In this document: in pieces, positions 8,984-64,000 of the stretch
Position numbering within the stretch: the stretch's first letter is position 1
Layout of the letters: each line of letters begins with the position of its first letter
NCBI RefSeq assembly: GCF_002563965.1
Contig: NZ_PDJF01000001.1
Coordinates: forward strand, 124,001 to 188,000
Length of the DNA stretch: 64,000 nucleotides
Source of the DNA: Corynebacterium renale
GTDB taxonomy: Bacteria > Actinomycetota > Actinomycetes > Mycobacteriales > Mycobacteriaceae
Reading direction: 5' to 3'
Made by a program: the position numbers and the translations under genes
The notes under the pieces: model-generated
What the model was told of the DNA's origin: nothing
The model's database searches: none
Seen by the model: the letters and a program-made list of their open reading frames with translations, nothing else

Positions 8984-10354
8984 GTGTCTAAGGATTCGCA
9001 GAAACGTACTTTCGCGCAACTGGGTGTTGCTGTTGAAATCACTGACGCTTTGGCAGCGCATGGGATTAGCTACCCGTTTGCTATCCAGGAGCTCACTTTG
9101 CCGCTTGCTCTTGATGGGCATGACATTATTGGGCAGGCTCGTACGGGTATGGGCAAGACCTTGGGCTATGGAATCCCGCTGCTCGACCGCGTCTTCGACG
9201 CCGGTGACGTGGAAGAACTTGACGGCACGCCGCGCGGCTTAGTCATTGCGCCGACGCGCGAGCTCGCCGACCAGGTAGCCGAGGACCTTCTTGTCGCGGC
9301 GGAAAATCTGCCGGTGCGCATCACCAAGGTGTACGGCGGCACGCCGTATGAGAAACAGATAGCTAAGCTGCACAAAGGCACCGACATTGTCGTGGGCACG
9401 CCCGGGCGCATCATTGACCTGCATAATCAAGGAGAGCTGACGCTTCAGCGGGTTGCGATCGTGGTCTTAGATGAGGCCGATGAGATGCTCGATATGGGTT
9501 TCCTGCCGGACGTGCAGAAGATCCTCCGCGCCGTCAGTAATCGTGGCACCGCACGCCGCCATCAGACGATGCTGTTCTCCGCCACGATGCCGGGCCCCAT
9601 TTTGTCGCTGGCGCGTTCCATGATGCACAATCCGATCCACATCCGCGCTGAACAAGCGGACGCATCGAAGACGCACAAGTCCACCCGCCAGGTAGTGTTT
9701 TCCGTGCATCGGATGGATAAGCCGGCGGTTTTGGCAACGATTCTGCAGAGTCCAGGTCGCGGGAAAACTATTATTTTTAGCCGAACTCGTCGCAGTACTG
9801 CCGCGGTCGCTGAGGATCTGGCGCAGCGCGGATTCCACGTCGCTGCAGTGCATGGGGATATGCCGCAGTCCGCGCGCGAGCGTTCCCTGCAGGCCTTCCG
9901 CGATGGAAAGGTCTCTATCTTGGTGGCTACCGACGTCGCCGCCCGGGGCATCGACGTCGACGACGTCACGCACGTCATCAACTTCCACGTCCCCGATGAT
10001 CCGATGACGTATATCCACCGAATTGGACGCACCGGTCGCGCCGGTCACTCTGGTACGGCCGTGACGTTTGTAGATCTCGATGAGCTCCATAAATGGGCGC
10101 TTATCGACGCCGAGGTGGGCGTCGATAAGCCCAAGCCACCAACGTGGTTTTCTACCTCCCCTGAACTCCGGGAAGCGTTTGACATTGCCGATGATGTGGC
10201 GGATTCCGTGGGCCCAGCACGGCCAGTGTTCGGGCAGAAGTCGTTTGCGCGCCAGGAGCTCGATCGCACGCGTTCGCGGAGTACCGGCCGCAGTCCAGCG
10301 CGGAAAGCGCGGAGCCGCCGGTTGCGTGGCCGTCAGCAAGGTGGGCGCAAGTGA
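8984..10354 (+). CDS. rhlE: DEAD-box ATP-dependent RNA helicase (RhlE-like)
   Basis: Unwinds RNA duplexes with ATP in ribosome assembly or RNA decay. The 456-aa protein has all core motifs in order: Q-motif region (FAIQE), Walker A ARTGMGKT near 52-59, PTRELA, TPGR, DEAD (VLDEADEMLDMG), SAT, and HRIGRTGR in the second RecA-like domain. The C-terminus is a short, very basic tail rich in Arg/Ser, typical of RNA-binding extensions. The GTG start fits a leaderless mRNA. The gene ends in GTGA, overlapping the next start by 4 bases, so the two are coupled. It is the counterpart of Rv3211. Confidence 0.9.
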   Translation: MSKDSQKRTFAQLGVAVEITDALAAHGISYPFAIQELTLPLALDGHDIIGQARTGMGKTLGYGIPLLDRVFDAGDVEELDGTPRGLVIAPTRELADQVAEDLLVAAENLPVRITKVYGGTPYEKQIAKLHKGTDIVVGTPGRIIDLHNQGELTLQRVAIVVLDEADEMLDMGFLPDVQKILRAVSNRGTARRHQTMLFSATMPGPILSLARSMMHNPIHIRAEQADASKTHKSTRQVVFSVHRMDKPAVLATILQSPGRGKTIIFSRTRRSTAAVAEDLAQRGFHVAAVHGDMPQSARERSLQAFRDGKVSILVATDVAARGIDVDDVTHVINFHVPDDPMTYIHRIGRTGRAGHSGTAVTFVDLDELHKWALIDAEVGVDKPKPPTWFSTSPELREAFDIADDVADSVGPARPVFGQKSFARQELDRTRSRSTGRSPARKARSRRLRGRQQGGRK

Positions 10355-11571: not shown

Positions 11572-11586
11572 TTCACGAATGGAAAA

Positions 11587-11612
11587 CCCCGGAACGAAAA
11601 ACCGTTCCGGGG
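11587..11612 (-). terminator. Intrinsic terminator (minus-strand polarity, possibly bidirectional)
   Basis: Perfect 10-bp arms (CCCCGGAACG at 11587-11596, complement at 11603-11612) with an A-rich loop. On the minus strand the stem is followed by four Ts, so it suits the membrane-protein gene at 11641-12078; it may also stop the convergent Rv3212-like gene. Confidence 0.75.
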
Positions 11613-11640
11613 TGACCTGTTTGCACTGTTTGTGAGCGCT

Positions 11641-12078: not shown

Positions 12079-12225
12079 GAGCGCTTAGTTTAGGCGAGCT
12101 GGGACGTTTCGGGTAGTGCTTACTGTGCTTATCGACGCCCACGTGGAAGCAATTTGACATTCATTGAAAAACATCCCCGATTTCCGCAACACGCATCCCA
12201 CGCCCCTACCAGCGCTTATGTGCAT

Positions 12226-12244
12226 TTAAGTAAGGCTACACTTA
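12226..12244. promoter_or_regulatory. DtxR-box-like sequence overlapping a -10 (TACACT)
   Basis: TTAAGTAAGGCTACACTTA matches 16 of 19 positions of the degenerate DtxR/IdeR box (TWAGGTWAGSCTWACCTWA). It contains TACACT (12237-12242), a plausible -10, so an iron-loaded repressor bound here would block transcription towards whiB1/whcE. This is sequence similarity only. Confidence 0.35.
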
Positions 12245-12384
12245 GTGACTACCGCACTGTCGGGGCCATTTTTACTCACGCCAAAACGTTAAAACCCGGT
12301 GAGTTTAGTCACATTATACCCTCTACCCCTAGACGCGGGACTGTATTCATGTCATCATTTCCAAGTAACCGAAACGTACGGGAT

Positions 12385-14708: not shown

Positions 14709-15383
14709 TCAGCGGTCCACGCATTCCTGCGGGAGCAGGTCGGCGTCGTCATTGGCTACACTGCCCACCCTCTGATCGGCCTTCCCCCAGGTCATGGCGT
14801 CGATAAGCCCAGAACCCATAGGCTCAAGCAGGGCCGCGCGATCTGCAGCGGAACCGTAGAGCCAGGCGCGCGCTTCATCCGGGGCGAGGAAGCGGGGCAT
14901 CCGGTGGTGCAACCATTCGAGGTCACCGGCAGAAGCGGTGGTGATCGTTGTCGCTGAGGTGGTGTCCGCACCCGTGTCCCAAAGACCTGCAGCAAGCAGC
15001 GGTACGCCATCGATGCGGCGGACGAACCACGGCTGCTTATCCTTCCACTCGTAGTAGCCATCGAGCGGGATGAGCGCTGGGCGGGCCGAAAATGCGCTGC
15101 GGAACGACGGCTTCTCAGCAACCGTTTCAGCCCGCGCGTTGAACAGCGGCGGGCCTTCCATGTCCTTCTTCCAGTGCGGAAGCAGGCCCCACCGCGCGGG
15201 ATGTACCACTGCCCTGTCTTCCCCACCGGCTTGCACCACGGGCACGATCGTGGTGGGAGCAATGTTGTACCGGGCCCCGGGCATGGAGTACGGGTACTCG
15301 ACGCTTGTGTGAGGGCCTAGGTACTGCTCGAGCGTGGCGGTCATTGTCGGTTCGTCGGCAAAGAGTACGTAGCGTCCACACAT
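14709..15383 (-). CDS. SRAP-domain protein (YedK/HMCES family)
   Basis: Cytoplasmic 224-aa protein that forms a covalent thiazolidine crosslink with abasic sites in single-stranded DNA. The start is fixed by chemistry: catalytic Cys2 must follow the initiator Met, and ATG at 15381-15383 gives MCGRY. Other family features are present: the NARAET segment, [11 protein letters not shown], and the active-site region [11 protein letters not shown]. The -10 CATAAT sits 7 bases from the ATG, so the mRNA is probably leaderless. It is divergent from aroA with only 30 bases between start codons. A longer in-frame extension would bury the catalytic Cys and is rejected. Confidence 0.9.
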
Positions 15384-16724: not shown

Positions 16725-17736
16725 GCGTCGCTACTACGACGAATCCGATGTCAAAATCCGCCCAGGCAAGGGGTCACGCCCGCGCACCAAGGACCGCCCC
16801 GCGCACAAGGACGCGCTGTTCGGCATGGTCGTCACAAAAGATAGGGGCCGCTGGGGCGTGGTCTTGGACCGCGACGACGCAGCCCTCGGTAATGAGGCCC
16901 CCGCAATAGTCTGCATGCGCGCCCGCGAATTGGGCCGCACCCCCATTGAGGTCGGGGACAGGGTGGGCGTCGTTGGCGACACTTCCGGGCGCAAGGATAC
17001 GTTGGCACGCATCGTGAAGCTGGAAGAGCGGACCTCTGTGCTACGCCGCACCGCCGATGACACCGACCCCTACGAGCGCATCGTGGTAGCGAATGCGGAG
17101 ATTCTGCTCATCGTGTCCGCAGTCGCCGATCCCCCACCGCGCGCCGGGTTCGTTGAGCGTTCGCTCATCGCCGCATTTGTAGGCAATGTCAAGCCCGTTA
17201 TCGCGCTGACCAAGACGGATCTCGCCGATCCGACTGAATTCGCCGCCGAATTCGCCGACCTGGACGTTCCCGTGGTCACCTGCGGGGTCGACGACGACCT
17301 CACCCAACTGCATTCGCTTATCGACGGCCACGTCTCCGCCCTCGTCGGACATTCCGGAGTAGGCAAGTCAACCCTGGTCAACCGCCTGGTGCCCGACGCA
17401 GACCGCGAAACGGGCGAAGTCTCTGAGGTAGGTAAGGGCCGGCATACGTCAACGCAGTCGGTGGCCCTGCGCCTGCCCGGCGAAAACGGAGGCTGGATCG
17501 TGGATACCCCCGGAATCCGTTCTTTCGGGTTGGCGCATGTGGATGCCGACCAGGTCATCGGCGTTTTCGATGACCTCGCCGAGGCGGTTCAGGACTGTCC
17601 GCGTGGGTGCACACACTTAGGCCCGCCGGCGGATCCGGAGTGTGGTTTGGACAACCTTGAGGGGGCCTCAGCGCGGCGGGCGGAAGCTGTGCGCAGTTTG
17701 CTTAAAGCGTTGCGCACGAATGTGGACTGGGCTTAG
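16717..17736 (+). CDS. rsgA: Ribosome small-subunit-dependent GTPase RsgA
   Basis: Circularly permuted GTPase that tests late 30S ribosome maturation. The 339-aa protein has an OB-fold N-terminus, then the permuted motifs TKTD (G4), GHSGVGKST (G1) and DTPG (G3), and a C-terminal zinc region ([16 protein letters not shown]). It starts at GTG 16717 inside the aroA end. The TAG stop shares bases with the TAA stop of the convergent gene (TTAG at 17733-17736). Length fits the family; the very basic N-terminus is typical for rRNA binding. Confidence 0.93.
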
Positions 17737-18771: not shown

Positions 18772-19203
18772 GTGCCCATTTCGCAGTCTGTGCAGCGCGG
18801 TTCGCGGCTGCGCCCTATCCCCGGTTTGGTGCTCTTATCGACGCTCGACGTCGCCCCACCTCCCCGCCCAGCTGAATCCGAACCTGAGGCCGTGGACCCG
18901 GCCATCGTGGCGCTGGTACGCGCCCGCTGTCAGGTGGTCTTTGAGGTTTTGATTCGCTCCCGCCCGAATAGTCTTATCCACTGGCCGACATATAGTCCTT
19001 TTATCAATAAAATGCTGCGAAATACTCGGCTACGCCACCCGGCGGGGAAGGCTGTGGAGATCACGCATCTGGACCCCGACGTATCGACAAAGTACGACAT
19101 CCGTTTTGTTAACTTTCACGGGATTGTCCGAACGGGGGGTCATGCCTATGCCTTCGTCGGCAAAGTTGTGGGTAAAACTCTGGTAGAACTACAGATAATT
19201 TGA
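18772..19203 (+). CDS. Rv3235-family protein
   Basis: Protein of 143 aa from GTG at 18772 with AGGAG upstream. A proline-rich N-terminal third is followed by VDPAIVALVRARCQVVFEVL and a C-terminal strand-rich part ending in YAFVGKVVGKTLVELQII. The layout and the position upstream of the secA region match the uncharacterised Rv3235 family, and in other genomes the C-terminal part resembles a small alpha/beta fold. The second half is noticeably more A+T-rich than its neighbours. The stop falls within an inverted repeat (19201-19256). Function unknown. Confidence 0.6.
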   Translation: MPISQSVQRGSRLRPIPGLVLLSTLDVAPPPRPAESEPEAVDPAIVALVRARCQVVFEVLIRSRPNSLIHWPTYSPFINKMLRNTRLRHPAGKAVEITHLDPDVSTKYDIRFVNFHGIVRTGGHAYAFVGKVVGKTLVELQII

Positions 19204-22380: not shown

Positions 22381-24924
22381 TTAGACGGTCACCGTAGTGT
22401 CCTCATCCTTTGGCTCAAACTGCGGGCGCAGGAGGAACAGTTGGCGAACCGTTTCTTCCTTGATCGCATCATTCATAGCCAAGAACATGTCGCCACCTTC
22501 CTTCTGGTACTCAACCAGAGGATCACGCTGTGCCATCGCACGCAGGCCGATACCCTCCTTGAGGTAATCCATCTCGTAGAGGTGTTCACGCCACTTCTGG
22601 TCAATGACCGGCAGGATAATCATGCGCTCGATGTTGCGCATCTGCTGCTCGCCACCGATTGCGGCAACGTTTTCTTCCAGACGATCGTATTCGCGGTGGG
22701 CGTCGACAAGTACTGCTGCCTTGAGGTCCTCGGCGGTGAGTTCGCCTGGTTGGCCGTACTCGGAGCCGTCGATAAGCTCCTGGGCACTGAAGGTCGGGCC
22801 GTACAGTGCGTCGAGCGCGTGCCAGAGGGTATCCAGGTCCCAGTCCTCCACGTAGCCTTCGGCGGTGGCGCCGTCGACGTAGGCGGAGATGGTGTCGTCG
22901 ATCATGGTCTGAATGTTCTCGCCGATGTCCTCGGATTCGAGGATGTGGTTGCGCTCGCGGTAGATGACCTTGCGCTGTTCGTTGAGAACTTCGTCGTACT
23001 TGAGCACGTTCTTACGCATCTCAAAGTTCTGGTTCTCCACCTGCGCCTGCGCACCCTTGATGGAGTTGCTGACCATCTTCGCCTCGATGGGGACGTCGTC
23101 GGGGACGTTGAGGCGGTTCATCATGTTCTCCATGGACTGACCGACGAACCGCACCATGAGGTCGTCGCGCATGGATAGGTAGAAGCGGGTCTCGCCTGGG
23201 TCACCCTGGCGGCCGGAACGGCCACGCAGCTGGTTATCGATACGACGGGACTCGTGGCGCTCTGTACCCAGGACGTACAGGCCGCCGTTTTCACGGACCT
23301 CGTCACCACGGCGCTCACACTTTTCCTTGAACGCAGGCAGCTCTGCCTCCCACGCTTCCTGGTATTCTTCAGCGTTTTCCACGGGGTCCAGGCCACGCTC
23401 ACGCAGGCGAATATCCAGCAAGATGTCGGGGTTACCGCCGAGTACGATGTCCGTACCACGACCAGCCATGTTGGTTGCAACAGTCACCTGGCCTGGCAAA
23501 CCTGCCTGTGCGATGATCTCCGCTTCTTGCTCGTGGTACTTCGCGTTGAGCACGTTGTGCTTGATGCCACGGCGCTGCAGCAGCTGGGATAGGTATTCGG
23601 AACGTTCCACCGAGGTGGTACCCACCAGCACGGGCTGGCCGGCAGCCTGGCGCTCGGCGATGTCGTCGGCAACTGCGGCGAACTTTGCTTCCTGGGTCTT
23701 GTAAATACGGTCCGAGTGGTCCACACGCTGGTTCGGGCGGTTCGGCGGGATCGGAACAACGTTGACCTTGTAAATCTGGTGCAGCTCGGCTGCCTCGGTC
23801 TCCGCCGTACCGGTCATGCCGGCCAGCTTGTCGTACAGACGGAAGTAGTTCTGCAGCGTCACCGTTGCAAGGGTCTGGTTTTCATTCTTGATCTCCACGC
23901 CCTCTTTAGCCTCGATGGCCTGGTGCATGCCCTCGTTGTAACGACGGCCCGCCAAAACACGGCCGGTGAAGGAGTCCACGATGAGCACCTCACCGTTTCG
24001 CACGATGTAGTCCTTATCGCGCTCAAAGAGTTCCTTCGCCTTTAGCGCGTTGTTCAGGTAGCTGACCAACTGCGAGTTCTGTGGCGCATACAGGTTGTCG
24101 ATACCCAGCTGGTCCTCCACGAACTCGACGCCCTGCTCGAGCACGCCGACGGTGCGCTTACGCTGGTCAACCTCGTAGTGAATACCCTCGCGCATGCGTG
24201 GCGCCAACTGGGCAAACACGTTGTAGAACTGGGAGGAACCGTCCACCGGGCCAGAGATGATCAGTGGGGTACGTGCTTCGTCGATAAGAATCGAGTCCAC
24301 CTCATCCACGATGGCGTAGTGGTGGCCACGCTGCACCTTGTCATTCAGGCTGCGGACCATGTTATCGCGCAGGTAGTCAAAGCCAAGTTCATTGTTCGTG
24401 CCGTACGTGATGTCGCACGCATACGCCTGCTTGCGTTCTGCGGGGCGCATCTCCGAAAGAATCGTGCCCACAGTTAGGCCCATCCACCGGTGCACACGGC
24501 CCATCCAGTCGCCGTCACGCTTAGCCAAGTAATCGTTCACCGTGACCACGTGCACGCCCTTGCCCTCAAGCGCGTTGAGGTAAACCGGCAACGCGGACGT
24601 CAGTGTCTTACCTTCACCGGTGCGCATCTCGGCAACGTCGCCAAAGTGCAAGGTCGCGCCGCCCATAATCTGGACTGGGTACGGTTTCTGGCCCAGCACG
24701 CGCCACGATGCCTCGCGGATCACTGCAAAGGCTTCCAACAGGATGTCATCCAAGGTTTCGCCGTCAGCGAGACGCTTCTTAAACTCATCCGTCTTAGCCT
24801 TGAGCTCATCGTCTGAGAGCTTTTCGATCTCAGGTTCGAGGTCGCATACCTGGTCAGCAATCTTCTTCAGACGCTTAACAGTACGGCCTTCGCCGGCGCG
24901 GAGCAGCTTGGAAAGTCCAAACAC
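22381..24924 (-). CDS. secA: Preprotein translocase ATPase SecA (SecA1)
   Basis: Motor that drives unfolded preproteins through SecYEG. The 847-aa protein shows Walker [29 protein letters not shown], the IGTTSVE-like [20 protein letters not shown], the [17 protein letters not shown] motif, and the helical wing/scaffold. The C-terminus ends [12 protein letters not shown] and lacks the zinc-binding SEC-C tail, which I understand is usual for actinobacterial SecA1. GTG start at 24922-24924 with AAGGAA upstream. The position between lutC and hpf corresponds to secA1 next to Rv3241c. Confidence 0.96.
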
Positions 24925-26610: not shown

Positions 26611-28332
26611 TTATTGGGCCACAATCGGTGCAGAACGCAGGCCTTGCAGGCCAGGTACTTCACGCCAGAAAGAGGTATCAGCACCGGCACCTGTGGTGTA
26701 TTGACGGATGGCGATGGCGTCAGTCAAGTACACGGTGGTTCCCGTCGACGCCACAGCCACGACCGGCACGGTCACGTTACCCGAGGGCAGCGTAGCGACC
26801 GCGGAGCCGTCGTACTCCACCCGCCAAATCGGGGTCTCCGCAGAGGACGTCCCCACGACGAGAAAACCCGCCGGCTGCCACGCCACCGACACCGCAGTTC
26901 CGGCCAGTGCCGGAGCGAGCTCGTGCACGTTGACAATGCGGCGAGCGCCGTTTGCCTGTCGCTCCACCACACCCATATACAGGTGCCCATTGATGATCAT
27001 GGCAACCCGCACACCACTCGGCGACAGGCGCAAGACCGAAATCTCCCCCTCGATCGCGCTTAACGACGACGTATCCACTGGTTGTTGCGAAATATCCCCA
27101 GTATTCGGAGCGCGCACGACACGCACTACGTCACTTTCGCCTACGACTGTCCATACTGCGGAATCATCGAATTCGAAGCTCGGCCGGGTAATCATGTCGT
27201 TTCGACCAACCACCGTGACGGCCCCGTCCAAGGTGCCAATCACCAGTTCTTTCTCATTCCCATTCCCGGTTGCACGCACCGCGGCGACCCGCTGGCGTGG
27301 GGATATATCGGCGGACTGCACCGGCTGGCCCACGCCCACCTCGCCGGGCACCGGCTCGATGCCAGAGGACGCGACGCGGTAGACGTGACCGTCGTGAAGC
27401 GCGTAAATCGGTTGCACGGCCGCAGAGGCTACCTGCGGGTTATAGGCTGCGAAATCGTCCGTCGAGAGGGACGCGTAGCCGGGTGACAACGGGACGCCGT
27501 CGAGAAGCACATCATAGGGTCCCGGAACACCTGCATCCGCCAGTGTCCACACCAGTTGGGCACCGAAGTGCAGGCGCTCTTCGGGAGTGGCGTTCTGGAA
27601 ACCGGTGAACTCGTAGACGCCATCATTGAGTCCGAGGAACGTCGCCTCCTTAGGGATCGCGCTAAAGACGCCGGGACGAATCTGCTGGGAGGGCCCCTCG
27701 ATGAGCATGTTGACCAAGACGGTCACCATATTCGTCTGACCGTTATACGTCCACCGGCGATCTTGGGCCAGTACATTTCCACCTGGGGCGAGGAAATACA
27801 CGTTGCGCGGATCGTAATGATTTCGCAGCTCCACACGCTCAATAACCACCCCAGCCGGCAGCGCAGTGATGCGCCACTGGCCGTCGACCTTCTGCATCTC
27901 AATATGCGCCGTATACGTGCTGTGATCAGGCGTGTACGAACCATCCGTAGCCAGTTGCCCCACCACGATGCCAGATACGTCAAAGACCCGTCGGTTCTCC
28001 GACTGGCTCACCTGCGAGTTGATGTCGATCCGGTCGACCACCAACGTGCGGTCCTCCGCACGCCAATTCTGGGCCGCATCACCAGCCAAGAAAGCACGTG
28101 CCGCCTGGTAGTCCTGGGTCGGACGGGCAAGCGCGGCGTAAAAATCACGCAGCAGCAGATCCGGTTCGCGGCCATCTTGCGGCGCCAGGGATTCCTCCTC
28201 CACGACAGGCGGTTGGAAGGAATGCAGCGCAGTGGGCTCCGTATTCGCAGGCAGGGAACTGCACGCTCCCAGGACGCCTATCGACGCCACCGCGACCACA
28301 ACCTTGACGTGCCGTGCAAGTTTACGCTTCAC
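26611..28332 (-). CDS. lpqB: LpqB, lipoprotein partner of the MtrAB two-component system
   Basis: Exported lipoprotein of 573 aa that interacts with the extracellular part of MtrB and modulates MtrA phosphorylation. The signal peptide is followed by a lipobox (VLGAC, lipidated Cys24). A GerMN domain (around 190-310; VTVLVNMLIEGPSQQI) and a C-terminal beta-propeller-like domain (repeated strands, for example VAAVRATGNGNEKELVIG) follow. The GTG start overlaps the mtrB TGA by 4 bases, a conserved coupling in mycolata. Confidence 0.94.
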   Translation of the reverse strand: MKRKLARHVKVVVAVASIGVLGACSSLPANTEPTALHSFQPPVVEEESLAPQDGREPDLLLRDFYAALARPTQDYQAARAFLAGDAAQNWRAEDRTLVVDRIDINSQVSQSENRRVFDVSGIVVGQLATDGSYTPDHSTYTAHIEMQKVDGQWRITALPAGVVIERVELRNHYDPRNVYFLAPGGNVLAQDRRWTYNGQTNMVTVLVNMLIEGPSQQIRPGVFSAIPKEATFLGLNDGVYEFTGFQNATPEERLHFGAQLVWTLADAGVPGPYDVLLDGVPLSPGYASLSTDDFAAYNPQVASAAVQPIYALHDGHVYRVASSGIEPVPGEVGVGQPVQSADISPRQRVAAVRATGNGNEKELVIGTLDGAVTVVGRNDMITRPSFEFDDSAVWTVVGESDVVRVVRAPNTGDISQQPVDTSSLSAIEGEISVLRLSPSGVRVAMIINGHLYMGVVERQANGARRIVNVHELAPALAGTAVSVAWQPAGFLVVGTSSAETPIWRVEYDGSAVATLPSGNVTVPVVAVASTGTTVYLTDAIAIRQYTTGAGADTSFWREVPGLQGLRSAPIVAQ

Positions 28333-37943: not shown

Positions 37944-38097
37944 ATCTTCAGAGTGTAGACTCGGACGCCCTTTTTGCCCACTTCTGCCCCATCCGTTTCA
38001 GGACGCTTCTCGACGTTCCCTCCGGCCACACACCACATTGTGACAGTTGACGTGCACGTTCTCCGCGTTGCTCCCCCATGCGCCCCGGCGTGCGGTT

Positions 38098-40398: not shown

Positions 40399-40535
40399 TA
40401 CTTACTCCCACTACATAGGCGTTTTCCATCGCGCCCCAATCCGGGACGAATTCACGATGATGCTACCGGCTGGCACTTAGGCGCTGGGACTGCCACGCTT
40501 ATCGACGCCCTCCCGGTTCGTTTTCGTCTACACGA

Positions 40536-45724: not shown

Positions 45725-46921
45725 TTAGTTGGCGGGGCCGTGGGTAAGAATCCGGGCAGCATGCGCCGCGCGTTCGCGGACGGCGTCTGCGGGTTCATCA
45801 AGCGCGCCCACAATGTTCACGTGCCCCAATTTACGGCCGGCGCGGTAGTCCTTGCCATAGAGGTGGACTTTAGCGTCGGGGTGTTCTTCCATGACTGTGC
45901 GCACGCGCTCCGACAATGTCACACCAGCAGGCTGTTCGGCGCCCAGAGTGTTGTGCATGACGGTCGTTGCACCTGGTCGCAGCATTTCAGTTGAGCCCAA
46001 AGGTAGGTCGCACACGGCGCGCAGGTGCTGTTCGAACTGGCTGGTTTCGGAACCGTCCTGGGTCCAGTGGCCGGTGTTGTGTGGGCGCATTGCGAGTTCG
46101 TTGATAAGCACGGAGCCGTCGGCAAGCTCAAAGACCTCCACTGCGAGCACACCAGTGACCCCGAGGAGTTCGGCGATGCGGGTACCCATTTCTTCGAGTT
46201 CGGCGCTGCGTTCTGCGCTCATGCCCGGCGCGGGTGCTATCGCCTCGACGCAGATTCCGTTCTTCTGCACGGACTGCGCGACTGGCCAGGCGCGGACCTC
46301 CCCGCTGCGACGACGTGCTACCAGGATGGACAGTTCGCGTTCGAAGGGGACCTTTGCTTCGCCGAGCATGGTGTGGCCGTCGGCGGTCGCGCTCGCGACC
46401 AGTTCGGTGGCTTCCGCGACGGTTTCCGGGAACCAGACGCCGTGGCCGTCGTAGCCTCCGGTTGCAGTCTTCAGGCACACAGCCCCACCGGTGCGTTCCC
46501 AGAACTTCTCGACGTCATCTGCAGTCTCCAGGACCGCGAAGTCAGGAACAGGAAACCCGAGCTCGGCCATCTTTGTACGCTGGGTTGCCTTGTTTTGCGC
46601 ATACTGCAGGGCTTCGGGGCGCGGTTCTACCTGAATCCCACGTTCCACGAGGCGGCGGGAAAATTCTGCGGGCACGTGCTCGTGGTCGAAGGTGACTACG
46701 TCCGCGTCTTGGCAGGCACGGTCCACGTCTTCCCACACGGTGTAATCACCGGGATAGACGGTGGTAAAAACCTGGGCTGCGGAGGCGTCTTTGGCACCGG
46801 CGAGCAGGTGCAATTCCATGCCGAGTTCGACGGCAGGGGTTTGCAGCATGCGGGCCAGTTGGCCATCACCAAGCACAGAGACAACGGGATAGGTTCGGGC
46901 TGAATTCTGTTGACCGCTCAC
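45725..46921 (-). CDS. purK: 5-(Carboxyamino)imidazole ribonucleotide synthase
   Basis: ATP-grasp enzyme of 398 aa that carboxylates AIR to N5-CAIR with ATP and bicarbonate. Motifs: VLGDGQLARML, GYDGHGVW, and INELAMRPHNTGHWT. GTG at 46919-46921 lies exactly 7 bases after TATAGT (46929-46934, minus), a convincing leaderless start; an upstream in-frame ATG at 46945 would put the promoter inside the gene. Operon with purE. Confidence 0.94.
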   Translation of the reverse strand: MSGQQNSARTYPVVSVLGDGQLARMLQTPAVELGMELHLLAGAKDASAAQVFTTVYPGDYTVWEDVDRACQDADVVTFDHEHVPAEFSRRLVERGIQVEPRPEALQYAQNKATQRTKMAELGFPVPDFAVLETADDVEKFWERTGGAVCLKTATGGYDGHGVWFPETVAEATELVASATADGHTMLGEAKVPFERELSILVARRRSGEVRAWPVAQSVQKNGICVEAIAPAPGMSAERSAELEEMGTRIAELLGVTGVLAVEVFELADGSVLINELAMRPHNTGHWTQDGSETSQFEQHLRAVCDLPLGSTEMLRPGATTVMHNTLGAEQPAGVTLSERVRTVMEEHPDAKVHLYGKDYRAGRKLGHVNIVGALDEPADAVRERAAHAARILTHGPAN

Positions 46922-47508: not shown

Positions 47509-48258
47509 TTAGTTGCCTTCGTAGCTGCCGTCGGCGCCGCGGACGTGGTGCACGTCGCCGGCTGCGATGTGGTGGGTAGTATCCGCTGCCGCGACGACGA
47601 GGTTGCCGGAATCATCGACGCCGGTGGCCTTTCCGGAGATTGCCCCTGAAGGGGTGTCCACGGATACCTCTTTGCCGATGGTCAGACAGCGGGAGCGGTA
47701 GGCGTCGAGAAGCTCGGGCAGTGCGCTTTCCCACTGGTGGAGGCGGCGCGCTAGGGCGTCGAGAAGCTGGGTGGCGTAGGTTTCCTTATCTACCTCGATG
47801 CCCTCGAGCGCGAGCGAGGTAGCGTGCGGGACAGGCAGCTGGTCTTCGGTGAGGCTGATGTTGGTGCCGATACCGATGGCAATGTAGGCGCCCTCGGAGG
47901 AGGTTTCGGCCTCGCACAGGATGCCGCAGACTTTTTTGCCGTTGAGGAGGAGGTCGTTGGGCCACTTCAGTTGAGATCCGGGAATGACGTCCGTGAGCGC
48001 GAGGCCAACTGCCAGCGGGATGGCCCAAATTGTGTCGGTCCGCTCGGTGGGCACCCGCCAGCCTGCAGAAAGGGACAGCGAGGAGCCGGCCGGTGCGACC
48101 CATTGGCGCGCCATTCGCCCACGCCCTGCATTCTGGTGGTCCGCGATAATCACAGCAGCGTGCGGGTGCGCGGCATCGGCAAGGATGTCAGCGTTGGTGG
48201 ATCCGGTGGCGTCGACATGGGTGACGTTCCAGATTCCGTGGGTGAAATTCGTGGCCAT
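47509..48258 (-). CDS. birA: Biotin--[biotin carboxyl-carrier protein] ligase
   Basis: Attaches biotin to the AMKM lysine of carboxylases, here AccBC and Pyc. The 249-aa protein has GSTN, GRGRMARQW (biotinyl-5'-AMP binding), LKWPNDLLLNGKKVCGIL and the C-terminal SH3-like domain. There is no N-terminal helix-turn-helix, so it is a class I ligase and not a repressor. ATG 48256-48258 follows GGAGGA; the frame is open to 48363 without other signals. Divergent from accD1, coupling to PH gene downstream. Confidence 0.93.
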   Translation of the reverse strand: MATNFTHGIWNVTHVDATGSTNADILADAAHPHAAVIIADHQNAGRGRMARQWVAPAGSSLSLSAGWRVPTERTDTIWAIPLAVGLALTDVIPGSQLKWPNDLLLNGKKVCGILCEAETSSEGAYIAIGIGTNISLTEDQLPVPHATSLALEGIEVDKETYATQLLDALARRLHQWESALPELLDAYRSRCLTIGKEVSVDTPSGAISGKATGVDDSGNLVVAAADTTHHIAAGDVHHVRGADGSYEGN

Positions 48259-52444: not shown

Positions 52445-53068
52445 ATGCGTATTATTTTGGCTTCCCAGTCCCCTTCGCGGCTGGGAATTTTGCGTTCCGC
52501 TGGCGTGGAGCCGGACGTCCGCCCCACCAGTATCGATGAGCCCGCGATTTTAGCACGCGCCGTCGAGGCCGGTGCCGATTATTCCGCCCAGGTCCTCACG
52601 TTGGCGCAGGCGAAGGCTCGTGCCGTGGGTGCGCAGCCGGGGGCTGTGACTATTGGCTGCGATTCCATGTTGCTTCTCGACGGCACCCTGCAAGGCAAAC
52701 CGCATACCGTCGAAGCAACCGTGGATCGGTGGCGGACGCAGGCTGGAAAATCCGCGCAGCTGCTCACTGGCCACTGCGTAATCGATTCCGACGGTTCGGA
52801 ATTTAGTAAGACAGTCTCCACGACCGTGCATTTCGCGGAAGCCACCGAGGAAGATATTCGCGCGTACGCGGAGTCTGGCGAGCCCCTCGAATGCGCGGGT
52901 GCTTTCACGCTGGAGGCCCTCGGCGGGTGGTTTATCGACCGGATTGAGGGCGATCCTTCCAGCGTCATTGGCCTTTCTTTGCCGTTGGTGCGCAGGGCGC
53001 TTTATTCGTTTGGGTATTCCGCCCACGAGTTTTGGGCCCCTACCTCTGGCACTGGTTCTAGGGCCTGA
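52445..53068 (+). CDS. maf: Maf-like nucleotide pyrophosphatase
   Basis: House-cleaning enzyme of 207 aa that hydrolyses non-canonical or methylated nucleoside triphosphates to monophosphates. ILASQSPSRLGILRSAGV carries the SxSPRR-type loop (SPSR), CDSMLLLDG the catalytic acidic pair, and ECAGAFTLEALGG the conserved Ala/Gly segment. Counterpart of Rv3282. The last 67 bases overlap the 3' end of the convergent acyltransferase gene; the C-terminal residues after FGYSAHEFW are extra. Confidence 0.9.
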   Translation: MRIILASQSPSRLGILRSAGVEPDVRPTSIDEPAILARAVEAGADYSAQVLTLAQAKARAVGAQPGAVTIGCDSMLLLDGTLQGKPHTVEATVDRWRTQAGKSAQLLTGHCVIDSDGSEFSKTVSTTVHFAEATEEDIRAYAESGEPLECAGAFTLEALGGWFIDRIEGDPSSVIGLSLPLVRRALYSFGYSAHEFWAPTSGTGSRA

Positions 53069-55165
53069 TTGTCGCGGACTGCGGCAAGGATGGGGGCGAT
53101 GTGTTTCCGTAGTTCCGGGATAAGGCTCATGGCGTAGGGCCGGGAAATGTGGTTGCCGTCACGGTACACGTAGATGTTTCCAATCGCGGCTGGGCAGAAT
53201 GTTGCGCCGCAGAACCAGTCTGATGTGTCGATGGTGTGCATGGCGCGGTACTGGCTTTCGTATTTTTTCGCCGGGTCTGGTCGGCTGTCAGGGCCGTAGA
53301 AGAGGGCTCGGTCAACACCACAGTCAAGGACGCCGTCGGTGCCTTCGTTTTCGGCGTGGCATTGGGATACTAGTTTGCCGGAGCCGTCGGCGTTGGTGAA
53401 CCAGGGGTTGTCTCGGAGGCCGATGAAGGTGATGCCGGAGGCGTCGAGAAGCGACCAGAGTGTGGGATAGGATTCGGGGACCGAGTCCATGTACTGCCCT
53501 TTTTCCAAAAGCGGCCGGGTGGATGTGGAGATCACGATGTCCGGTTGCATGTCCATGACGGCGTCCAAGGCCACCTGGTTGAACATGTGGCAGTCGTCGG
53601 CCCAGATGCCGTCGATGTCTTGCGCGAAGGCCGGGCAACTTTGGCGCGCAATGGGGATGAGCTGGAATCCTTCTTCACGACCAAGTTGGTCGAGTGGATC
53701 CATCCATTGCTCAGCGTGCGAGCCTCCGAGCAGGACCACGGTCAGGTCACCGTCGGGGTCACCGTAGCGGCAGTCCCGGTCGGGGTGCAGGTCCTGGGGT
53801 AGCACGTTGGCCGGGTCTGCGAAAGTGGAGAAGCAGCCATCGTCCCAGGCGAGCGAGTAACTGTCGGCGAGCAGGTAGGGGTCGGGGCGGTTGGGCATTT
53901 TCGGGAACGTAGGCGTTCTCGGTGAGCGCGCGGGCGCCCGGGTAGAACGTGGGGTCGAAGTCATTGTCGCTGAGTGCTTGAACTCGTTGCATGTGCGCGT
54001 GCGGTGCGACGAGTACGAGGGCACACAGACCTACCACGACAACCCCCGCACCAGCGCGTGCTTGCGCAGGGGCAGATATTTTGAGCTGTGCCCAGGCTGT
54101 GGCGAAACGGTTTTCTTCACCGTTCGGGCGGCGGGCTTTCTGCTGCAGCGGCCGTTCCACTAAGCGGTGCGTCAGGTCCGCCAACACCAGCGACGCCCCC
54201 ACAACCACGCACCCGAGGAGGATGCTCGGGGATTCGTTCCCGCTTATCGACGTCCCCACGATGAGCAGCGGCCAGTGCCACATATACAGCGGGTACGCGA
54301 TCTGGCCCAACCAGCGTGGGAAGCGGGACGCGAGGGCCCTGGCCACCGGTCCCCCGCCCACGATGAGCAGCGCTGTGCCGATGACCGGGTAGAGGGTCGC
54401 GGGGCCGGGAAAGACGCTAGCGCCGTCGAGAAGCACCCCAGTGCTTAAGACCATGAACAGACCTACGCCTGCCGCCCACGCCTGGATGCTCTGGGTGAGG
54501 CGCTCGCGCCATGCCGGGGCATAAAGCGCAAGGCAGGCGCCGCCGGTGAGTTCCCACATGCGGGAGAATGTGGAGTAGTAGTTCAATGCCTGGGCAGCAT
54601 GGTGAAGGTACCACGCGTATGCGAACGATGCCGCCGTGACTACAACGAGGACCGGCCCGGCGACGCGGGCCCCCACCCCGCGCCGCCGCAGCAGCACCAG
54701 GACCGATGCCACGAGAATTATCACCACGTAGAACTGCCCCTGGACGGACATGGACCAGATGTGTTGCAGGGGGCTTGCAGTCGCGGAGGCGGCCCCATAT
54801 TCCTGGCCTTGGCCTGCAAGCTCCCAGTTCTGGTAATACAGCAGGCTAGCCGTCAGCTGGCGGTAGTAGTTGGAGTCCCCCAGGCTCGGAGCCCAGGTGC
54901 GTACTGCAAGGGTCGTTGCGCCGAGTACGAGCACGAGCGTGGGAACAAGGCGCCGCAGTGTGCGCCACACTGGCCACCACGGGTTTGCGGAAGCGTCGGG
55001 ACGTGCTGCGTACCGCAGCTGCGAGCCGGCAAAGAAGTAGCCGGACAGCACCAAGAAGACGTCTACCCCGCCGGACACCTTGCCGACGAACACGTGGAAT
55101 AGGACGACGAAAGCAATGGCGATGCCCCGCAAACCGTCGAGGTCATACCTATATTGTGTTGCCAC
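53002..55165 (-). pseudogene. OafA-type acyltransferase with C-terminal SGNH domain, frameshifted
   Basis: One original gene split into two frames. The 5' part (55165-53759 frame) gives an acyltransferase-3 membrane domain: YRYDLDGLRGIAIAFVVLFHV with about ten helices, and the motif FLVLSGYFF. The 3' part (ending at 53002) gives the extracytoplasmic SGNH hydrolase-like domain with LLGGSHAEQW (block I Ser) and DGNHIS (Asp/His). Homologous sequence jumps frame near 53885-53910 (around TENAYVPEN to MPNRPDPYLL), as if one base were inserted. Family members O-acylate envelope glycans. Possible true pseudogene, sequencing error, or slippage. A complete gene would be about 720 aa. Confidence 0.75.
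53885..53910 (-). other. Probable frameshift site in the acyltransferase gene
   Basis: The 5' frame reads into CCGAAAATGCCCAACC. The downstream domain continues one base later. Short runs (CCC, AAAA, CCC) make a one-base indel plausible. Both frames stay open on either side for over 100 bases. Confidence 0.6.
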
Positions 55166-57541: not shown

Positions 57542-58447
57542 ATGCCCATCGAATTCGATCCCTCTCCCCGGTTCTCCGAGTACGCACACCCCGAGCGAGT
57601 GGTGTCTGCGGCGTGGCTGTCTGCCCACTTGGGCATGCCGGGCCTGAAGGTGGTGGAGTCCGATGAGGATTCCTTGCTCTACGACATTGGCCATATCCCC
57701 GGTGCGGTTCGCATTGATTGGCAGCGTGATCTCAATGATCCGATCACACGCGACTTCATCGACGGTGAGCGTTTTGCCAAGCTCATGAGCGAAAAGGGCA
57801 TCGCCCGCGACGACACGATCGTGGTGTATGGCGACCACAACAATTGGTGGGCCACCTACACGATGTGGGTCCTGACCATGTTCGGCCACGAGGACGTCCG
57901 CCTCCTCGATGGCGGCCGCGATGGCTGGATGGGCGAAGAACGCGACACGTCCTTTGCCGTGCCTGCGTATCCGGAAACGGATTACCCCGTCGTCAAGCGC
58001 AATGATGAGCTGCTGCGTGCTTTCGTCGAGGAAGTCGTAGAAGAAGCAGCCGCGAAGTCTTCGACGCTTATCGACGCCCGCCCCTCCATCTCCTACACGG
58101 CGGAAGAGCGCACCTCGGGCACATTTGCACGCAAGACCGGCAACCGCGAGGGACACATCCCGGGCGCGATTAACATTTCACACAACAAGGCCATTTACCC
58201 GAACAATACGTTCCGTGGCCGCAAGGAACTTGACGAGATTGCGGCAGATGTACCTACCGACAAGCCTATTATCGTGTACTGCCACTTAGGCGACCGCGCC
58301 TCGCACATGTGGTTCGTCCTGACGTACCTTTTGGGCTACGACAACGTGCGTGTCTACGACGGCTCCTGGGCCGAGTGGGGTTCGCGCGTGCGCATGCCAA
58401 TTGCTGTTGGCCCCACGCCTGAGGGTGATAACCAGCCGGAACTCTAA
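57542..58447 (+). CDS. thtR: Thiosulfate sulfurtransferase (rhodanese, SseA/ThtR)
   Basis: Two-domain rhodanese of 301 aa that moves sulfane sulfur from thiosulfate to acceptors. The N-terminal inactive domain (ESDEDSLLYDIGHIPGAVRIDW) and C-terminal active domain (LIDARPSISY...REGHIPGAINISHN) are intact. The active-site loop is CHLGDR at Cys247 where CRxGxR is common. ATG at 57542 has GAAAGG upstream; the frame extends to 57425 but that part is not rhodanese. Counterpart of sseA (Rv3283) between maf and accA3, divergent from the Cj0069-like gene. Confidence 0.93.
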   Translation: MPIEFDPSPRFSEYAHPERVVSAAWLSAHLGMPGLKVVESDEDSLLYDIGHIPGAVRIDWQRDLNDPITRDFIDGERFAKLMSEKGIARDDTIVVYGDHNNWWATYTMWVLTMFGHEDVRLLDGGRDGWMGEERDTSFAVPAYPETDYPVVKRNDELLRAFVEEVVEEAAAKSSTLIDARPSISYTAEERTSGTFARKTGNREGHIPGAINISHNKAIYPNNTFRGRKELDEIAADVPTDKPIIVYCHLGDRASHMWFVLTYLLGYDNVRVYDGSWAEWGSRVRMPIAVGPTPEGDNQPEL

Positions 58448-61670: not shown

Positions 61671-61827
61671 TGCCCTGTCCCCTATTCTGGCCCACCCCGG
61701 GCCGAGATTTTGTTTACTATGCACCCCACTGTAGTTTATTCGCACACACTTGTCAATACGAGACGTTTAACCAGGCATTTACCACCAGTTTCAACACTAC
61801 AGTTCGAACCCCAAAGCCCGTTAAGAA

Positions 61828-61858
61828 AACCGGCCCGAGCGAAATACTCGAGCCGGTT
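61828..61858 (-). terminator. Intrinsic terminator of pyc
   Basis: AACCGGCCCGAG (61828-61839) pairs with 61847-61858 with one mismatch; on the minus strand the stem ends in TTTTCTT. Confidence 0.85.
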
Positions 61859-61875
61859 AACTAGCTAAAGCACGG

Positions 61876-64000
61876 CTAGCTGATCTCGACGATCAGGTCG
61901 CCACCTTCCACCTTCGTTGGCTGCAGGAGGACAACACGGGAGACGGTGCCGTCGATAGGCGCAGAGATGGAGGCTTCCATCTTCATTGCCTCGATGACAG
62001 CAACTTGGTCGCCGGCCTTGACCTCATCGCCCTCTGAAGCGGTAACGGTAACAACGCCAGCGAACGGTGCCGGGACGTGGCCTTCGTTGGACGGGTTAGC
62101 CTTCTCGACGGTCGCGACGATGGACTCGGCGGACTCGTCACGCACGCGCATCGGGCGGATCTGGCCGTTGACCGTTGCGGTGACGTGGCGCATGCCCTTC
62201 TCGTCAGGCTCGCCGACGGCGTCGAGGCGGACCGTCATCTTGCGCTGCGAACCAGGAACTGGGATAACCAGCTCGCGGCCCTCGACGAGACCGTAGAAGA
62301 ACTCGAGGTCATCGAGCTGGTCCACGCGGCCGTAGAGGCGGCGGTGCTCCGCAAACTCCTCGGCAGGCTTCGGGAAGAGCAGCTTGTCCAGAGTATTGCG
62401 TCGTACTGCGCGATCCTCAGAGGCCAGGCCTTCCTCGGCTTCCTTGGAGATCGGCGCGGTCGGGTCGGCGCCTTCCTTACGCCCGGCAAGAGCCTTGTTG
62501 CGCAGTTCCTCAGGCCAGCCACCAGGAGGGGTACCCAGTTCGCCGCGCAGGAATGCGATGACGGAATCTGGGATGTCGTACTTCTGTGGGTCGGCAGCAA
62601 ATTCTGCAGCCGTCACACCAGTACCTACCAGCGACAGGGCAAGGTCGCCGACGACTTTGGAGGATGGGGTCACCTTCGTGGGTCGGCCGAGCATTTCGTT
62701 GACGTCTGCGTAGGTGTCCTCGATGAGTTCGAAGCGATCGGCCAGCCCCAGCGATGCTGCCTGCGTACGCAGGTTGGACAGCTGACCACCTGGGATTTCG
62801 TGGTTGTACACGCGGCCGGTTGGGCCAGGGATACCGGACTCGAATGGGGCGTAGACAGCACGCACTGCCTCCCAGTACGGCTCCAAATCGCCGACGGCAT
62901 CCAGCGACAGGCCAGTGTCGCGGTACGTATTCGCGAACGCAGCAACAATGGCCGACAGCGACGGCTGCGACGTGGTGCCGGAAACCGGAGCGGAAGCACC
63001 GTCGACGGCGTCGGCGCCCGCTTCTGCAGCGGCCAGGTAGGTTGCCAGCTGCCCACCAGCGGTGTCGTGCGTGTGTACGTGGACTGGCAGGTCGAATTCC
63101 TTGCGCAGAGCTGTGACCAGCTTCCGGGCAGCAGCCGGGCGCATGAGGCCAGCCATATCCTTGATACCGATGATGTGTGCACCAGACTTGACGATCTCCT
63201 CCGCCATACGCAGGTAGTAGTCAAGGGTGTACAGATCTTCCTTCGGGCTCGCCAGGTCACCGGAGTACGCCATCGCGACCTCAGCAATCGTGGTGCCGGT
63301 CTCCAGGACGGCGTCGATAGCTGGGCGCATCTGGGAAACGTCATTGAGCGCGTCGAAGATACGGAAGATATCGATACCGGATGCTGCGGCCTCGTTCACG
63401 AACGCCTTGCACACGGAATCCGGGTACGGGGTGTAACCCACGGTATTGCGGCCACGCAGCAGCATCTGGATATTAATGTTCGGCATCGCCTCGCGCAGCT
63501 TGTCCAGACGCTCCCACGGATCCTCGTGGAGGAAGCGCATTGCGACGTCGTAGGTTGCGCCACCCCATGCCTCAACGGACAGCAGCTGCGGGGTCAGGTG
63601 CGCAACAGCCTCGGCGGCTGGGATAAGTGCCGCGGTACGCACGCGCGTCGCCAGCAGCGACTGGTGCGCGTCACGGAACGAAGTGTCGGTGACAGCTAGG
63701 GCATCCTGCTGGCGCAGGCGGCGAGCAAACTCGGCCGGCCCGACGTCGAGAAGCAAGTCGCGGGAACCGCGCTGCAGTCCTGCCTTCTTATCAAAGGTCG
63801 GGAGCTTTTCGGCGGGGAGCAGGTTAGTCGGGCGGTCGCCATGTGGCTTGTTGACGGTCACCTCAGCCAAGTAATCCAGAATTCGGGAGGCTTCGTTGTC
63901 CGCTGGTGGCGCCTGCATCAACCATGGATGCTCGTCGATGAAGGAGGTGTCCAGGCGCGAAGACGTGAAGTCCGGCTCGCGGAGCAGAGCACGCAGGAAG
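61876..64000 (-). CDS. pyc: Pyruvate carboxylase, C-terminal part (5' end outside window)
   Basis: Carboxylates pyruvate to oxaloacetate, the main anaplerotic step. The window contains 708 codons of the usual roughly 1140; the biotin carboxylase domain is outside. Visible are the start of the carboxyltransferase (VTDTSFRDAHQSLLATRVRT, metal-binding region), the VHTHDTAGGQLATYLAA segment, HEIPGGQLSNLRTQA, the PYC_OADA domain and the biotin domain with AMKMEAS, whose Lys is 35 residues from the end. No stop interrupts the frame up to base 64000. An in-frame TTG/ATG near 63918 is internal. Substrate of BirA. Confidence 0.95.
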   Translation of the reverse strand, partial: FLRALLREPDFTSSRLDTSFIDEHPWLMQAPPADNEASRILDYLAEVTVNKPHGDRPTNLLPAEKLPTFDKKAGLQRGSRDLLLDVGPAEFARRLRQQDALAVTDTSFRDAHQSLLATRVRTAALIPAAEAVAHLTPQLLSVEAWGGATYDVAMRFLHEDPWERLDKLREAMPNINIQMLLRGRNTVGYTPYPDSVCKAFVNEAAASGIDIFRIFDALNDVSQMRPAIDAVLETGTTIAEVAMAYSGDLASPKEDLYTLDYYLRMAEEIVKSGAHIIGIKDMAGLMRPAAARKLVTALRKEFDLPVHVHTHDTAGGQLATYLAAAEAGADAVDGASAPVSGTTSQPSLSAIVAAFANTYRDTGLSLDAVGDLEPYWEAVRAVYAPFESGIPGPTGRVYNHEIPGGQLSNLRTQAASLGLADRFELIEDTYADVNEMLGRPTKVTPSSKVVGDLALSLVGTGVTAAEFAADPQKYDIPDSVIAFLRGELGTPPGGWPEELRNKALAGRKEGADPTAPISKEAEEGLASEDRAVRRNTLDKLLFPKPAEEFAEHRRLYGRVDQLDDLEFFYGLVEGRELVIPVPGSQRKMTVRLDAVGEPDEKGMRHVTATVNGQIRPMRVRDESAESIVATVEKANPSNEGHVPAPFAGVVTVTASEGDEVKAGDQVAVIEAMKMEASISAPIDGTVSRVVLLQPTKVEGGDLIVEIS

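What the first reader, a model, noticed from the sequence alone, without database searches (positions are those of the whole stretch)
10100..63753. Strongly over-represented 10-mer CTT[A/C]TCGACG on both strands
I find CTTATCGACG (or its complement) at 10100, 10120, 12128, 14798, 17317, 18834, 22767, 24279, 32172, 40498, 54243 and 58067, and CTTCTCGACG at 27498, 28469, 33863, 38005, 39328, 46505, 47703, 47758, 52673, 53442, 54425, 62101 and 63744. The extended consensus is GCTTATCGACGCCC. A random 64-kb sequence should hold about 0.1 of one 10-mer on both strands. Copies fall in different reading frames and on both strands, and two lie in intergenic DNA (12128, 40498), so codon use alone does not explain them. 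Two copies at 10100-10129 face each other inside the rhlE gene. It could be a chromosome-organisation, recombination (Chi-like), DNA-uptake or modification motif.
Basis: partly seen in the sequence, partly recalled or inferred. Interest (0 to 1): 0.7.

Follow-up and report, generated by a model that had tools for sequence, protein, structure and literature searches.

The report
DNA-uptake-like tags in Corynebacterium genomes
A short DNA word is repeated about 700 times all over this Corynebacterium chromosome, and some relatives carry altered versions of it, which is what one expects of a species "password" used to recognise and take up related DNA, a system known mainly from quite different bacteria.

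Summary
All 25 sites exist (0.25 expected). The 2.35-Mb chromosome holds 716 copies; the reversed control has 18. Synonymous-codon shuffling gives 9.3 where 123 coding copies are seen. The core is GCTTNTCGACG (N: A>C>T>G); every other single substitution of the A form falls from 74 to 0-8. Copies lie in and between genes, without leading/lagging bias (75 vs 76), and are fewer around prophage capsid genes of relatives (16 vs 35.6 expected).

The genus is Corynebacterium. Of 101 genomes, 76 have at least 5 times the control count, 18 less than 3 times. Densities like this one's were not seen in 199 genomes of 60 other genera. Some motif-poor species carry related "dialects": CTTGCCGATG in three, TNNTGACGCCAC in three, T-rich+TCGACGCCAC in at least two.

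Best reading: a DNA uptake sequence (DUS/USS-like), enriched by biased natural transformation through a Tad/Flp pilus, ComEA and ComEC, which are encoded here. Uptake is untested, the receptor unknown. Chi, KOPS, methylation and codon-use readings fit worse. The literature listings I saw name no Corynebacterium DUS.

The parts
10100..10109 (+). motif copy (A form), sense LID in DEAD-box helicase ORF 8966-10354
10120..10129 (-). motif copy (A form) facing the previous one, antisense (VDK) in the same ORF
12128..12137 (+). motif copy (A form), probable intergenic, upstream of a WhiB-family gene
14798..14807 (-). motif copy (A form) in SRAP-family gene
17317..17326 (+). motif copy (A form) in RsgA GTPase gene
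18834..18843 (+). motif copy (A form) in an ORF without Pfam match (18772-19203) or intergenic
22767..22776 (-). motif copy (A form) in secA, LIDG; the corresponding site carries the motif in three of the 11 other Corynebacterium secA loci fetched
24279..24288 (-). motif copy (A form) in secA, LIDEARTP; the motif is at this site in 3 of 12 Corynebacterium and 0 of 69 other actinobacterial secA genes
27498..27507 (-). motif copy (C form) in LpqB-like lipoprotein gene
28469..28478 (-). motif copy (C form) in sensor histidine kinase gene
32172..32181 (-). motif copy (A form) in S-adenosylhomocysteine hydrolase gene
33863..33872 (+). motif copy (C form) in an ORF without Pfam match (33674-34483)
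38006..38015 (+). motif copy (C form), intergenic, followed by TCCGGCC
39328..39337 (-). motif copy (C form) at the 3' end of a nucleotidyl transferase gene
40498..40507 (+). motif copy (A form), probable intergenic
46505..46514 (+). motif copy (C form), antisense (VEK) in a purK-like gene
47703..47712 (-). motif copy (C form) in biotin ligase-like gene
47757..47766 (-). motif copy (C form) in biotin ligase-like gene
52673..52682 (+). motif copy (C form) in maf-like gene
53442..53451 (-). motif copy (C form) in SGNH-domain ORF
54243..54252 (+). motif copy (A form), antisense in acyltransferase ORF 53759-55165
54424..54433 (-). motif copy (C form), sense strand of acyltransferase ORF 53759-55165
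58067..58076 (+). motif copy (A form) in rhodanese-domain gene
62101..62110 (+). motif copy (C form), antisense (VEK) in pyruvate carboxylase-like gene
63744..63753 (-). motif copy (C form) in pyruvate carboxylase-like gene

Best explanation
The motif, core GCTTNTCGACG with an often C-rich 3' side, is a DNA uptake sequence of the DUS/USS type. Extracellular DNA carrying it is preferentially bound and drawn in during natural transformation, most likely by a Tad/Flp-type pilus with ComEA as inner DNA receptor and ComEC as channel. Recombination of such tagged fragments replaces mutated sites and slowly adds new ones, so copies accumulate evenly in both orientations wherever the protein code allows. 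When the receptor changes specificity, a lineage moves to a new word, giving the dialects. Shown here: enrichment, sharpness, symmetry, spread, fewer copies near prophage capsid genes, dialects, presence of the machinery genes. Inferred: that cells are competent, that the word is read at uptake, and which protein reads it.
For: 716 genomic copies vs 18 reversed control. Beyond synonymous-codon and Markov nulls, in coding and in strictly intergenic DNA. Every single substitution of GCTTATCGACG outside the fifth base drops the count from 74 to 0-8. Leading/lagging 75:76 in 484 kb of the own genome, with replichore borders read by me from GC skew. 3-10 copies in every one of 23 own-genome 20-kb pieces. 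Prophage capsid neighbourhoods of motif-rich genomes: 16 vs 35.6 expected, P = 2e-4 (inner 10 kb: 9 vs 17.8, P = 0.017); ten other stretches of motif-rich genomes (six of them from G018) gave 59 vs 54.1. High density confined to Corynebacterium among the genomes searched: in 199 genomes of 60 other genera of the order the highest is 46 per Mb (G260) vs 305 per Mb here. Three genomes with few copies of the main word (15-19) have 252-548 copies of CTTGCCGATG; the other 98 have at most 55. Three others have 150-165 TNNTGACGCCAC; the other 98 have at most 18. The words overlap in a GAYGCC 3' core. ComEC in 101 of 101 and TadA-type ATPase over cut-off in 97 of 101 genomes; comEA-comEC and a tad locus in this genome. 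In the actinobacterium Micrococcus luteus, tad genes are required for transformation (PMC4322843, passages).
Against: No uptake or transformation data. ComEC and the TadA-type ATPase are present in motif-poor species too, so their presence does not predict the motif. G020 (446 copies, assembly 99% complete) and G074 (1059 copies, 90%) have no TadA over cut-off, which speaks against Tad unless it is an assembly gap. For 14-16 of 24 motif-poor genomes I have no dialect; five of these were sampled (100 kb each) without a convincing word, the rest were only counted with the four patterns. Outside the genus CTTMTCGACG often exceeds its reversed control too (G260: 253 vs 27); I read this as codon background, mostly the C form in the places listed, but did not test it. 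Inverted pairs, common for neisserial DUS and Haemophilus USS, are few: 7 pairs genome-wide (reversed control 0) against roughly 2.3 expected by my hand estimate. The prophage effect is about twofold, the stretches may include host DNA, and composition was not controlled.
Confidence: 0.77

Rival explanations
1. Chi-like recombination hotspot read by the AdnAB or RecBCD helicase-nuclease during break repair.
For: Hundreds of spread copies; species-specific words are known for Chi (recalled). A UvrD/PD-(D/E)XK helicase-nuclease ORF lies at 3386-6640.
Against: Chi sites known to me are 5-8 bases and biased to the leading strand (recalled). Here the core is 11 bases with one relaxed position and the bias is nil (75:76). 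Fewer copies near prophage capsids is not specific to either reading.
Confidence: 0.08
2. Chromosome-organisation signal (KOPS, matS, parS, nucleoid-protein site).
For: Genome-wide spread.
Against: No polarity and 3-10 copies in every one of 23 20-kb pieces, so no orientation or regional gradient seen; core not palindromic; discrete dialects within the genus.
Confidence: 0.03
3. Target of a DNA methyltransferase or restriction-modification system, as proposed by some for HIP1-like words (recalled).
For: Cannot be excluded from sequence alone; uptake and methylation can be combined (recalled for Campylobacter).
Against: Modification does not by itself multiply a site (inference); the core is long and not palindromic.
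Confidence: 0.05
4. Transcription terminator or intergenic repeat family.
For: One perfect head-to-head hairpin between convergent genes at L097:11375; in the own genome 13 CCGG start 3-6 bases after the core among 22 copies called intergenic (15 among 140 coding copies), and some sit next to hairpins with T tails.
Against: Most copies are single and inside genes (123 of 145); only 7 close inverted pairs in the genome.
Confidence: 0.05
5. By-product of codon use or base composition.
For: 71 of 123 coding copies are in the one sense frame giving LID/LLD, 35 in the antisense frame giving VDK/VEK. Outside the genus the word also often exceeds its reversed control.
Against: Synonymous shuffling gives 9.3 vs 123; enriched outside ORFs; at most 46 per Mb in 60 other genera of the order vs 305 per Mb here.
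Confidence: 0.01

Closest known systems
DNA uptake sequence (DUS) of Neisseriaceae and its dialects (PMC3630211 and PMC2397512, passages seen)
   Same: Hundreds to thousands of copies of a short non-palindromic word in both orientations; scarcer in acquired DNA; single-base sharpness; related dialects in sister species sharing a small core; pilus plus ComEA/ComEC machinery (last point recalled).
   Different: Different word; Gram-positive, mycomembrane-bearing genus (recalled); Tad/Flp locus rather than a known type IV pilus (ComP and type IV pilins were not searched for); few inverted-pair terminators; transformation not shown.
Uptake signal sequence (USS) of Pasteurellaceae (recalled; search listings and one passage in PMC5217627 only)
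   Same: High copy number, both strands, coding and intergenic; possible flanking segments (T-rich upstream in two dialects, TCCGGCC downstream of many intergenic copies here).
   Different: Different word and lineage; uptake not shown.
Flp-pilus-dependent transformation of Micrococcus luteus (PMC4322843, passages seen)
   Same: Actinobacterial tad genes with comEA and comEC.
   Different: The term 'uptake sequence' does not occur in that paper's main text; M. luteus needs two tad clusters.
Chi, KOPS and other skewed oligomers (recalled)
   Same: Over-represented, chromosome-wide.
   Different: Strand bias expected there is absent here.

Membership tests
DUS/USS uptake sequences | Short non-palindromic word far above expectation, genome-wide | tested here: met
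   716 vs 18 control; 123 vs 9.3 after synonymous shuffle
DUS/USS uptake sequences | Both orientations, no replichore bias | tested here: met
   75:76 leading/lagging in 484 kb. The near-equal forward/reverse totals over 101 genomes (13,995:14,043) show both strands are used but do not test replichore bias
DUS/USS uptake sequences | Occurs in genes and between genes | tested here: met
   strict intergenic number 5 in 30.9 kb is a lower bound
DUS/USS uptake sequences | Scarce in recently acquired DNA | tested here: met
   16 vs 35.6 near prophage capsid genes, 13 stretches from 12 motif-rich genomes; only about twofold, composition not controlled
DUS/USS uptake sequences | Related dialects in relatives | tested here: met
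DUS/USS uptake sequences | Closely spaced inverted pairs acting as terminators | tested here: inconclusive
   7 pairs vs roughly 2.3 by hand estimate; one terminator-like hairpin
DUS/USS uptake sequences | DNA-uptake machinery encoded | tested here: met
   comEA-comEC, tad locus (tadC and prepilin peptidase not looked for); not discriminating across the genus
DUS/USS uptake sequences | Motif raises DNA uptake or transformation | not testable with these tools
   needs experiment
DUS/USS uptake sequences | Sequence-specific receptor (ComP in Neisseria) | not tested
   ComP was not searched for; TadE-like pilins and ComEA are only named as candidates
Chi sites | Bias to leading strand | tested here: not met
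   75:76
KOPS/AIMS | Strand polarity toward terminus | tested here: not met
   75:76
Methylation target | Base modification at the site | not testable with these tools
   no long-read data

The most novel reading that the evidence does not exclude
Corynebacterium has a sequence-specific DNA uptake system with at least three, probably four or more, mutually exclusive dialects sharing a GAYGCC core (GCTTMTCGACGCC, GCTTGCCGATGCC, T-rich+TNNTGACGCCACC, and probably T-rich+TCGACGCCACC). It would be a DUS system in a Gram-positive lineage, read by a Tad/Flp pilus or ComEA, evolved independently of Neisseriaceae and Pasteurellaceae, and it would partition recombination among corynebacterial species.
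Probability: 0.68. Interest if true: 0.9.

Novelty: new variant of a known kind. Interest (0 to 1): 0.8.

Why it matters
If true, self-DNA recognition during transformation arose in a Gram-positive lineage with a different pilus type and diversified into dialects inside one genus. That gives a second natural experiment, besides Neisseriaceae, on how a DNA receptor and a genome co-evolve. It predicts that many corynebacteria are or were naturally transformable, shows which species should exchange DNA, and makes the actinobacterial uptake receptor directly testable.

Tried and rejected
Dialect search in motif-poor genomes (11 of the 24 below 25 copies per Mb were sampled, 100 kb each): G013, G029 and G038 gave no convincing motif; G065 gave a weak TATCGACGCC signal and G083 a weak CGATGCC signal. 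ComEC tree of 19 genomes: only one strongly supported fork, with the bootstrap not settled; it groups G009, G014, G032, G053 and G065 (100/99), which are the TCGACGCC/TGACGCC species, but the relation of the GCTTMTCGACG and GCTTGCCGATG species is unresolved, so the dialect switch could not be dated. The C-terminal part of the ComEA alignment, looked at by eye, shows no obvious dialect-specific residue. ComEC and TadA presence was tried as a predictor of the motif and fails, both being nearly universal. The inverted-pair/terminator idea is too rare to explain the motif. The pattern TCGACGCCAC is an imperfect marker for the fourth word because it overlaps the 3' end of the main word: motif-rich genomes reach 135. 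My gene caller missed genes: 52673, 54243 and 54424 were first called intergenic but lie in Pfam-supported ORFs, and 33863 lies in an ORF without Pfam match, so the figure 22 of 145 intergenic is too high. Prophage test: 7 of the 20 capsid hits were left out of the 20-kb test, all from genomes with few main-word copies. The first version with 3.8-kb loci gave 2 vs 6.8 in the same genomes, P = 0.035. The forward/reverse totals over 101 genomes were first taken as evidence against strand bias; they are not, since a polar motif would also sum to equality.
Full report
WHAT WAS CLAIMED AND WHETHER IT HOLDS. All 25 are there, three with a coordinate off by one; shuffles that keep dinucleotides give 0.25 on average and never more than 2 in 100. 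The window lies in a single 2,348,927-base contig that holds 386 forward and 330 reverse copies, against 8 and 10 of the same letters read backwards. Per-gene synonymous codon shuffling leaves 9.3 +/- 3.1 copies (maximum 20 of 100) where 123 are seen; a third-order Markov model of the DNA my caller put between genes gives 0.2 (maximum 1 of 30) where 22 are seen. My gene caller is crude: at least three of those 22 lie in Pfam-supported genes. Counting only DNA outside every ORF of 100 aa or more (484-kb sample), 5 copies remain in 30.9 kb, with no control hit.

ANATOMY. The core is GCTTNTCGACG. G precedes CTT in 129 of 145 copies. At the fifth base the sample holds A 74, C 55, T 20, G 13. From GCTTATCGACG, every substitution elsewhere occurs 0-8 times against 74; from GCTTCTCGACG, 0-4 times against 55, except at the sixth base, where T to A, G or C is found 20, 10 and 7 times. 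Coding copies prefer sense LID/LLD (71 of 123) or antisense VDK/VEK (35 of 123) frames, presumably the frames in which the word is tolerable. Among 22 GCTTNTCGACG copies called intergenic (the two arms of one hairpin included), CCGG starts 3-6 bases after the core 13 times; among 140 coding copies 15 times. Full examples read GCTTMTCGACGCCC(N)TCCGGCC. This could be a longer recognition element or overlap with terminators. In the few copies sampled from other genomes, coding and intergenic not separated, it was not evident.

DISTRIBUTION IN THIS GENOME. Taking the GC-skew switches near 0.8 and 1.9 Mb as replichore borders (my reading; a few pieces depart from the pattern), 75 copies are on the leading and 76 on the lagging strand. 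Each of 23 20-kb pieces holds 3-10 copies (mean 6.2, variance 3.8). Head-to-head pairs within 30 bases number 7 in the genome, reversed control 0; I estimate roughly 2.3 by chance. One, at L097:11375, is a perfect hairpin between convergent genes.

WHO HAS IT. Best SecA relatives are Corynebacterium. Of 101 genus genomes (the own genome and 100 sampled), 46 have at least 100 copies per Mb, 76 have at least five times the reversed control, and 24 have fewer than 25 per Mb; the own genome ranks third by density. Named carriers include C. lowii 400, C. wankanglinii 387, C. riegelii 367 and C. tuberculostearicum 165 copies (titles, counts). In 199 further genomes of the order, from 60 other genera, the highest density is 46 per Mb (G260). 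There the word still often exceeds its reversed control (G260: 253 vs 27), mostly as the C form in the places listed; I take this for codon background but did not test it. At the conserved SecA LIDEARTP site, 3 of 12 Corynebacterium genes but 0 of 69 other actinobacterial genes spell it with CTTATCGACG; a second SecA site carries the motif in the window and in three of the 11 other Corynebacterium loci.

DIALECTS. Sampling 11 of the 24 motif-poor genomes without assumptions showed other words. G052 and G006 have GCTTGCCGATGCC. Whole-genome counts of CTTGCCGATG are 548, 387 and 252 in G052, G006 and G093, with reversed controls of 1, 0 and 5; the other 98 genomes have at most 55. The same three have only 16, 19 and 15 copies of the main word. 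G053 showed a T-rich stretch and TNNTGACGCCAC; whole-genome counts are 155, 165 and 150 in G053, G075 and G078, and at most 18 in the other 98. G009, G014 and more weakly G032 showed T-rich stretches before TCGACGCCAC; counts are 218, 301 and 127 with reversed controls of 15, 20 and 17, but this pattern overlaps the main word, so motif-rich genomes reach 135 and this dialect is the least secure. The words align on GAYGCC. Fourteen to sixteen of the 24 motif-poor genomes remain without an identified word; five of those were sampled, the others only counted with the four patterns.

PROPHAGE TEST. HK97-type capsid genes were found in 18 of 101 genomes, 20 hits. I took 13 stretches of 20 kb from 12 motif-rich genomes: 16 copies against 35.6 expected from each genome's density, P = 2e-4; in the inner 10 kb 9 against 17.8, P = 0.017. 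Ten other stretches from five motif-rich genomes (six from G018) gave 59 against 54.1. Base composition was not controlled and stretches may include host DNA.

MACHINERY. The own genome has comEA (SLBB plus helix-hairpin-helix) directly before comEC and holA (L099:8359-11653), and a tad locus (L178:7102-11404). In it the ATPase is named by Pfam; the names tadZ, tadB, flp and TadE-like rest on position and resemblance, recalled; tadC and a prepilin peptidase were not looked for. ComEC was found in 101 of 101 genomes (in two frames in G001) and the TadA-type ATPase over cut-off in 97 of 101. In Micrococcus luteus tad genes are required for transformation (PMC4322843, passages). These genes are therefore necessary background, not discriminating evidence.

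INTERPRETATION. [quoted passage not shown] I put 0.77 on an uptake-sequence role. Not shown: competence, uptake preference, receptor. Against: TadA missing over cut-off in two motif-rich assemblies (G020, G074), many motif-poor species without a found dialect, few inverted pairs.

LITERATURE. Ten searches of the held open-access library were made; one search was for Flp pili. No listing I saw reports an uptake sequence in Corynebacterium. One search, for the letters themselves, matched 123 papers, of which only 20 were listed; those listed looked unrelated by title. A study of spaced motifs that treated three Corynebacterium genomes reports, in the passages I saw, CRISPR-related patterns for them (PMC5217627). 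A review (PMC6370729, passages) describes the neisserial receptor ComP and the M. luteus Flp system and, in the passages I saw, names no Gram-positive uptake sequence. Subscription papers and preprints are not held, so prior description elsewhere cannot be excluded.

VERDICT. Real, widespread in the genus, not codon-driven in this genome; best filed as a new variant of the DUS/USS kind, pending an uptake experiment.

Noticed in passing
window 53002-55165 (-): An acyltransferase-3 domain ORF (53759-55165) and an SGNH domain ORF (53002-54024), the latter domain described by Pfam as fused to AT3 domains, overlap as separate ORFs on one strand; possibly a frameshifted gene or two overlapping genes.
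   Followed up: no
window 3386-6640 (-): 1084-aa ORF with UvrD helicase and PD-(D/E)XK nuclease domains, an AdnB-like (name recalled) break-repair enzyme candidate.
   Followed up: no
L178:7102-11404 and L099:8359-10697: tad/Flp pilus locus and comEA-comEC genes of the own genome, candidates for the uptake machine.
   Followed up: partly
intergenic motif copies, e.g. window 38006 and L094:9474: Copies between genes in the own genome are often followed by TCCGGCC-like letters, a possible second recognition block or terminator overlap.
   Followed up: partly
G009, G014, G032 (L127-L131, L151-L160) and G053 (L161-L165): Their variant words are preceded by a T-rich stretch, reminiscent of flanking tracts of the Haemophilus USS (recalled).
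   Followed up: partly
G053 stretches L161-L165: A 12-mer ACCCGGATAACC occurs 8 times in 100 kb (0.03 expected), another repeated word of unknown meaning.
   Followed up: no
G001:C4:524862-525658 and L085 (G042): The ComEC match of G001 (179 main-word copies) and the ComEA match of G042 (305 copies) each fall in two overlapping pieces, as if in different frames, suggesting broken com genes or sequencing errors.
   Followed up: no
G080: Zero copies of CTTMTCGACG while the reversed control has 15: the word looks avoided, not just absent.
   Followed up: no
G083 stretches L137-L141: CGATGCC enriched (58 vs about 18 expected in 100 kb), perhaps a decayed or further dialect.
   Followed up: partly
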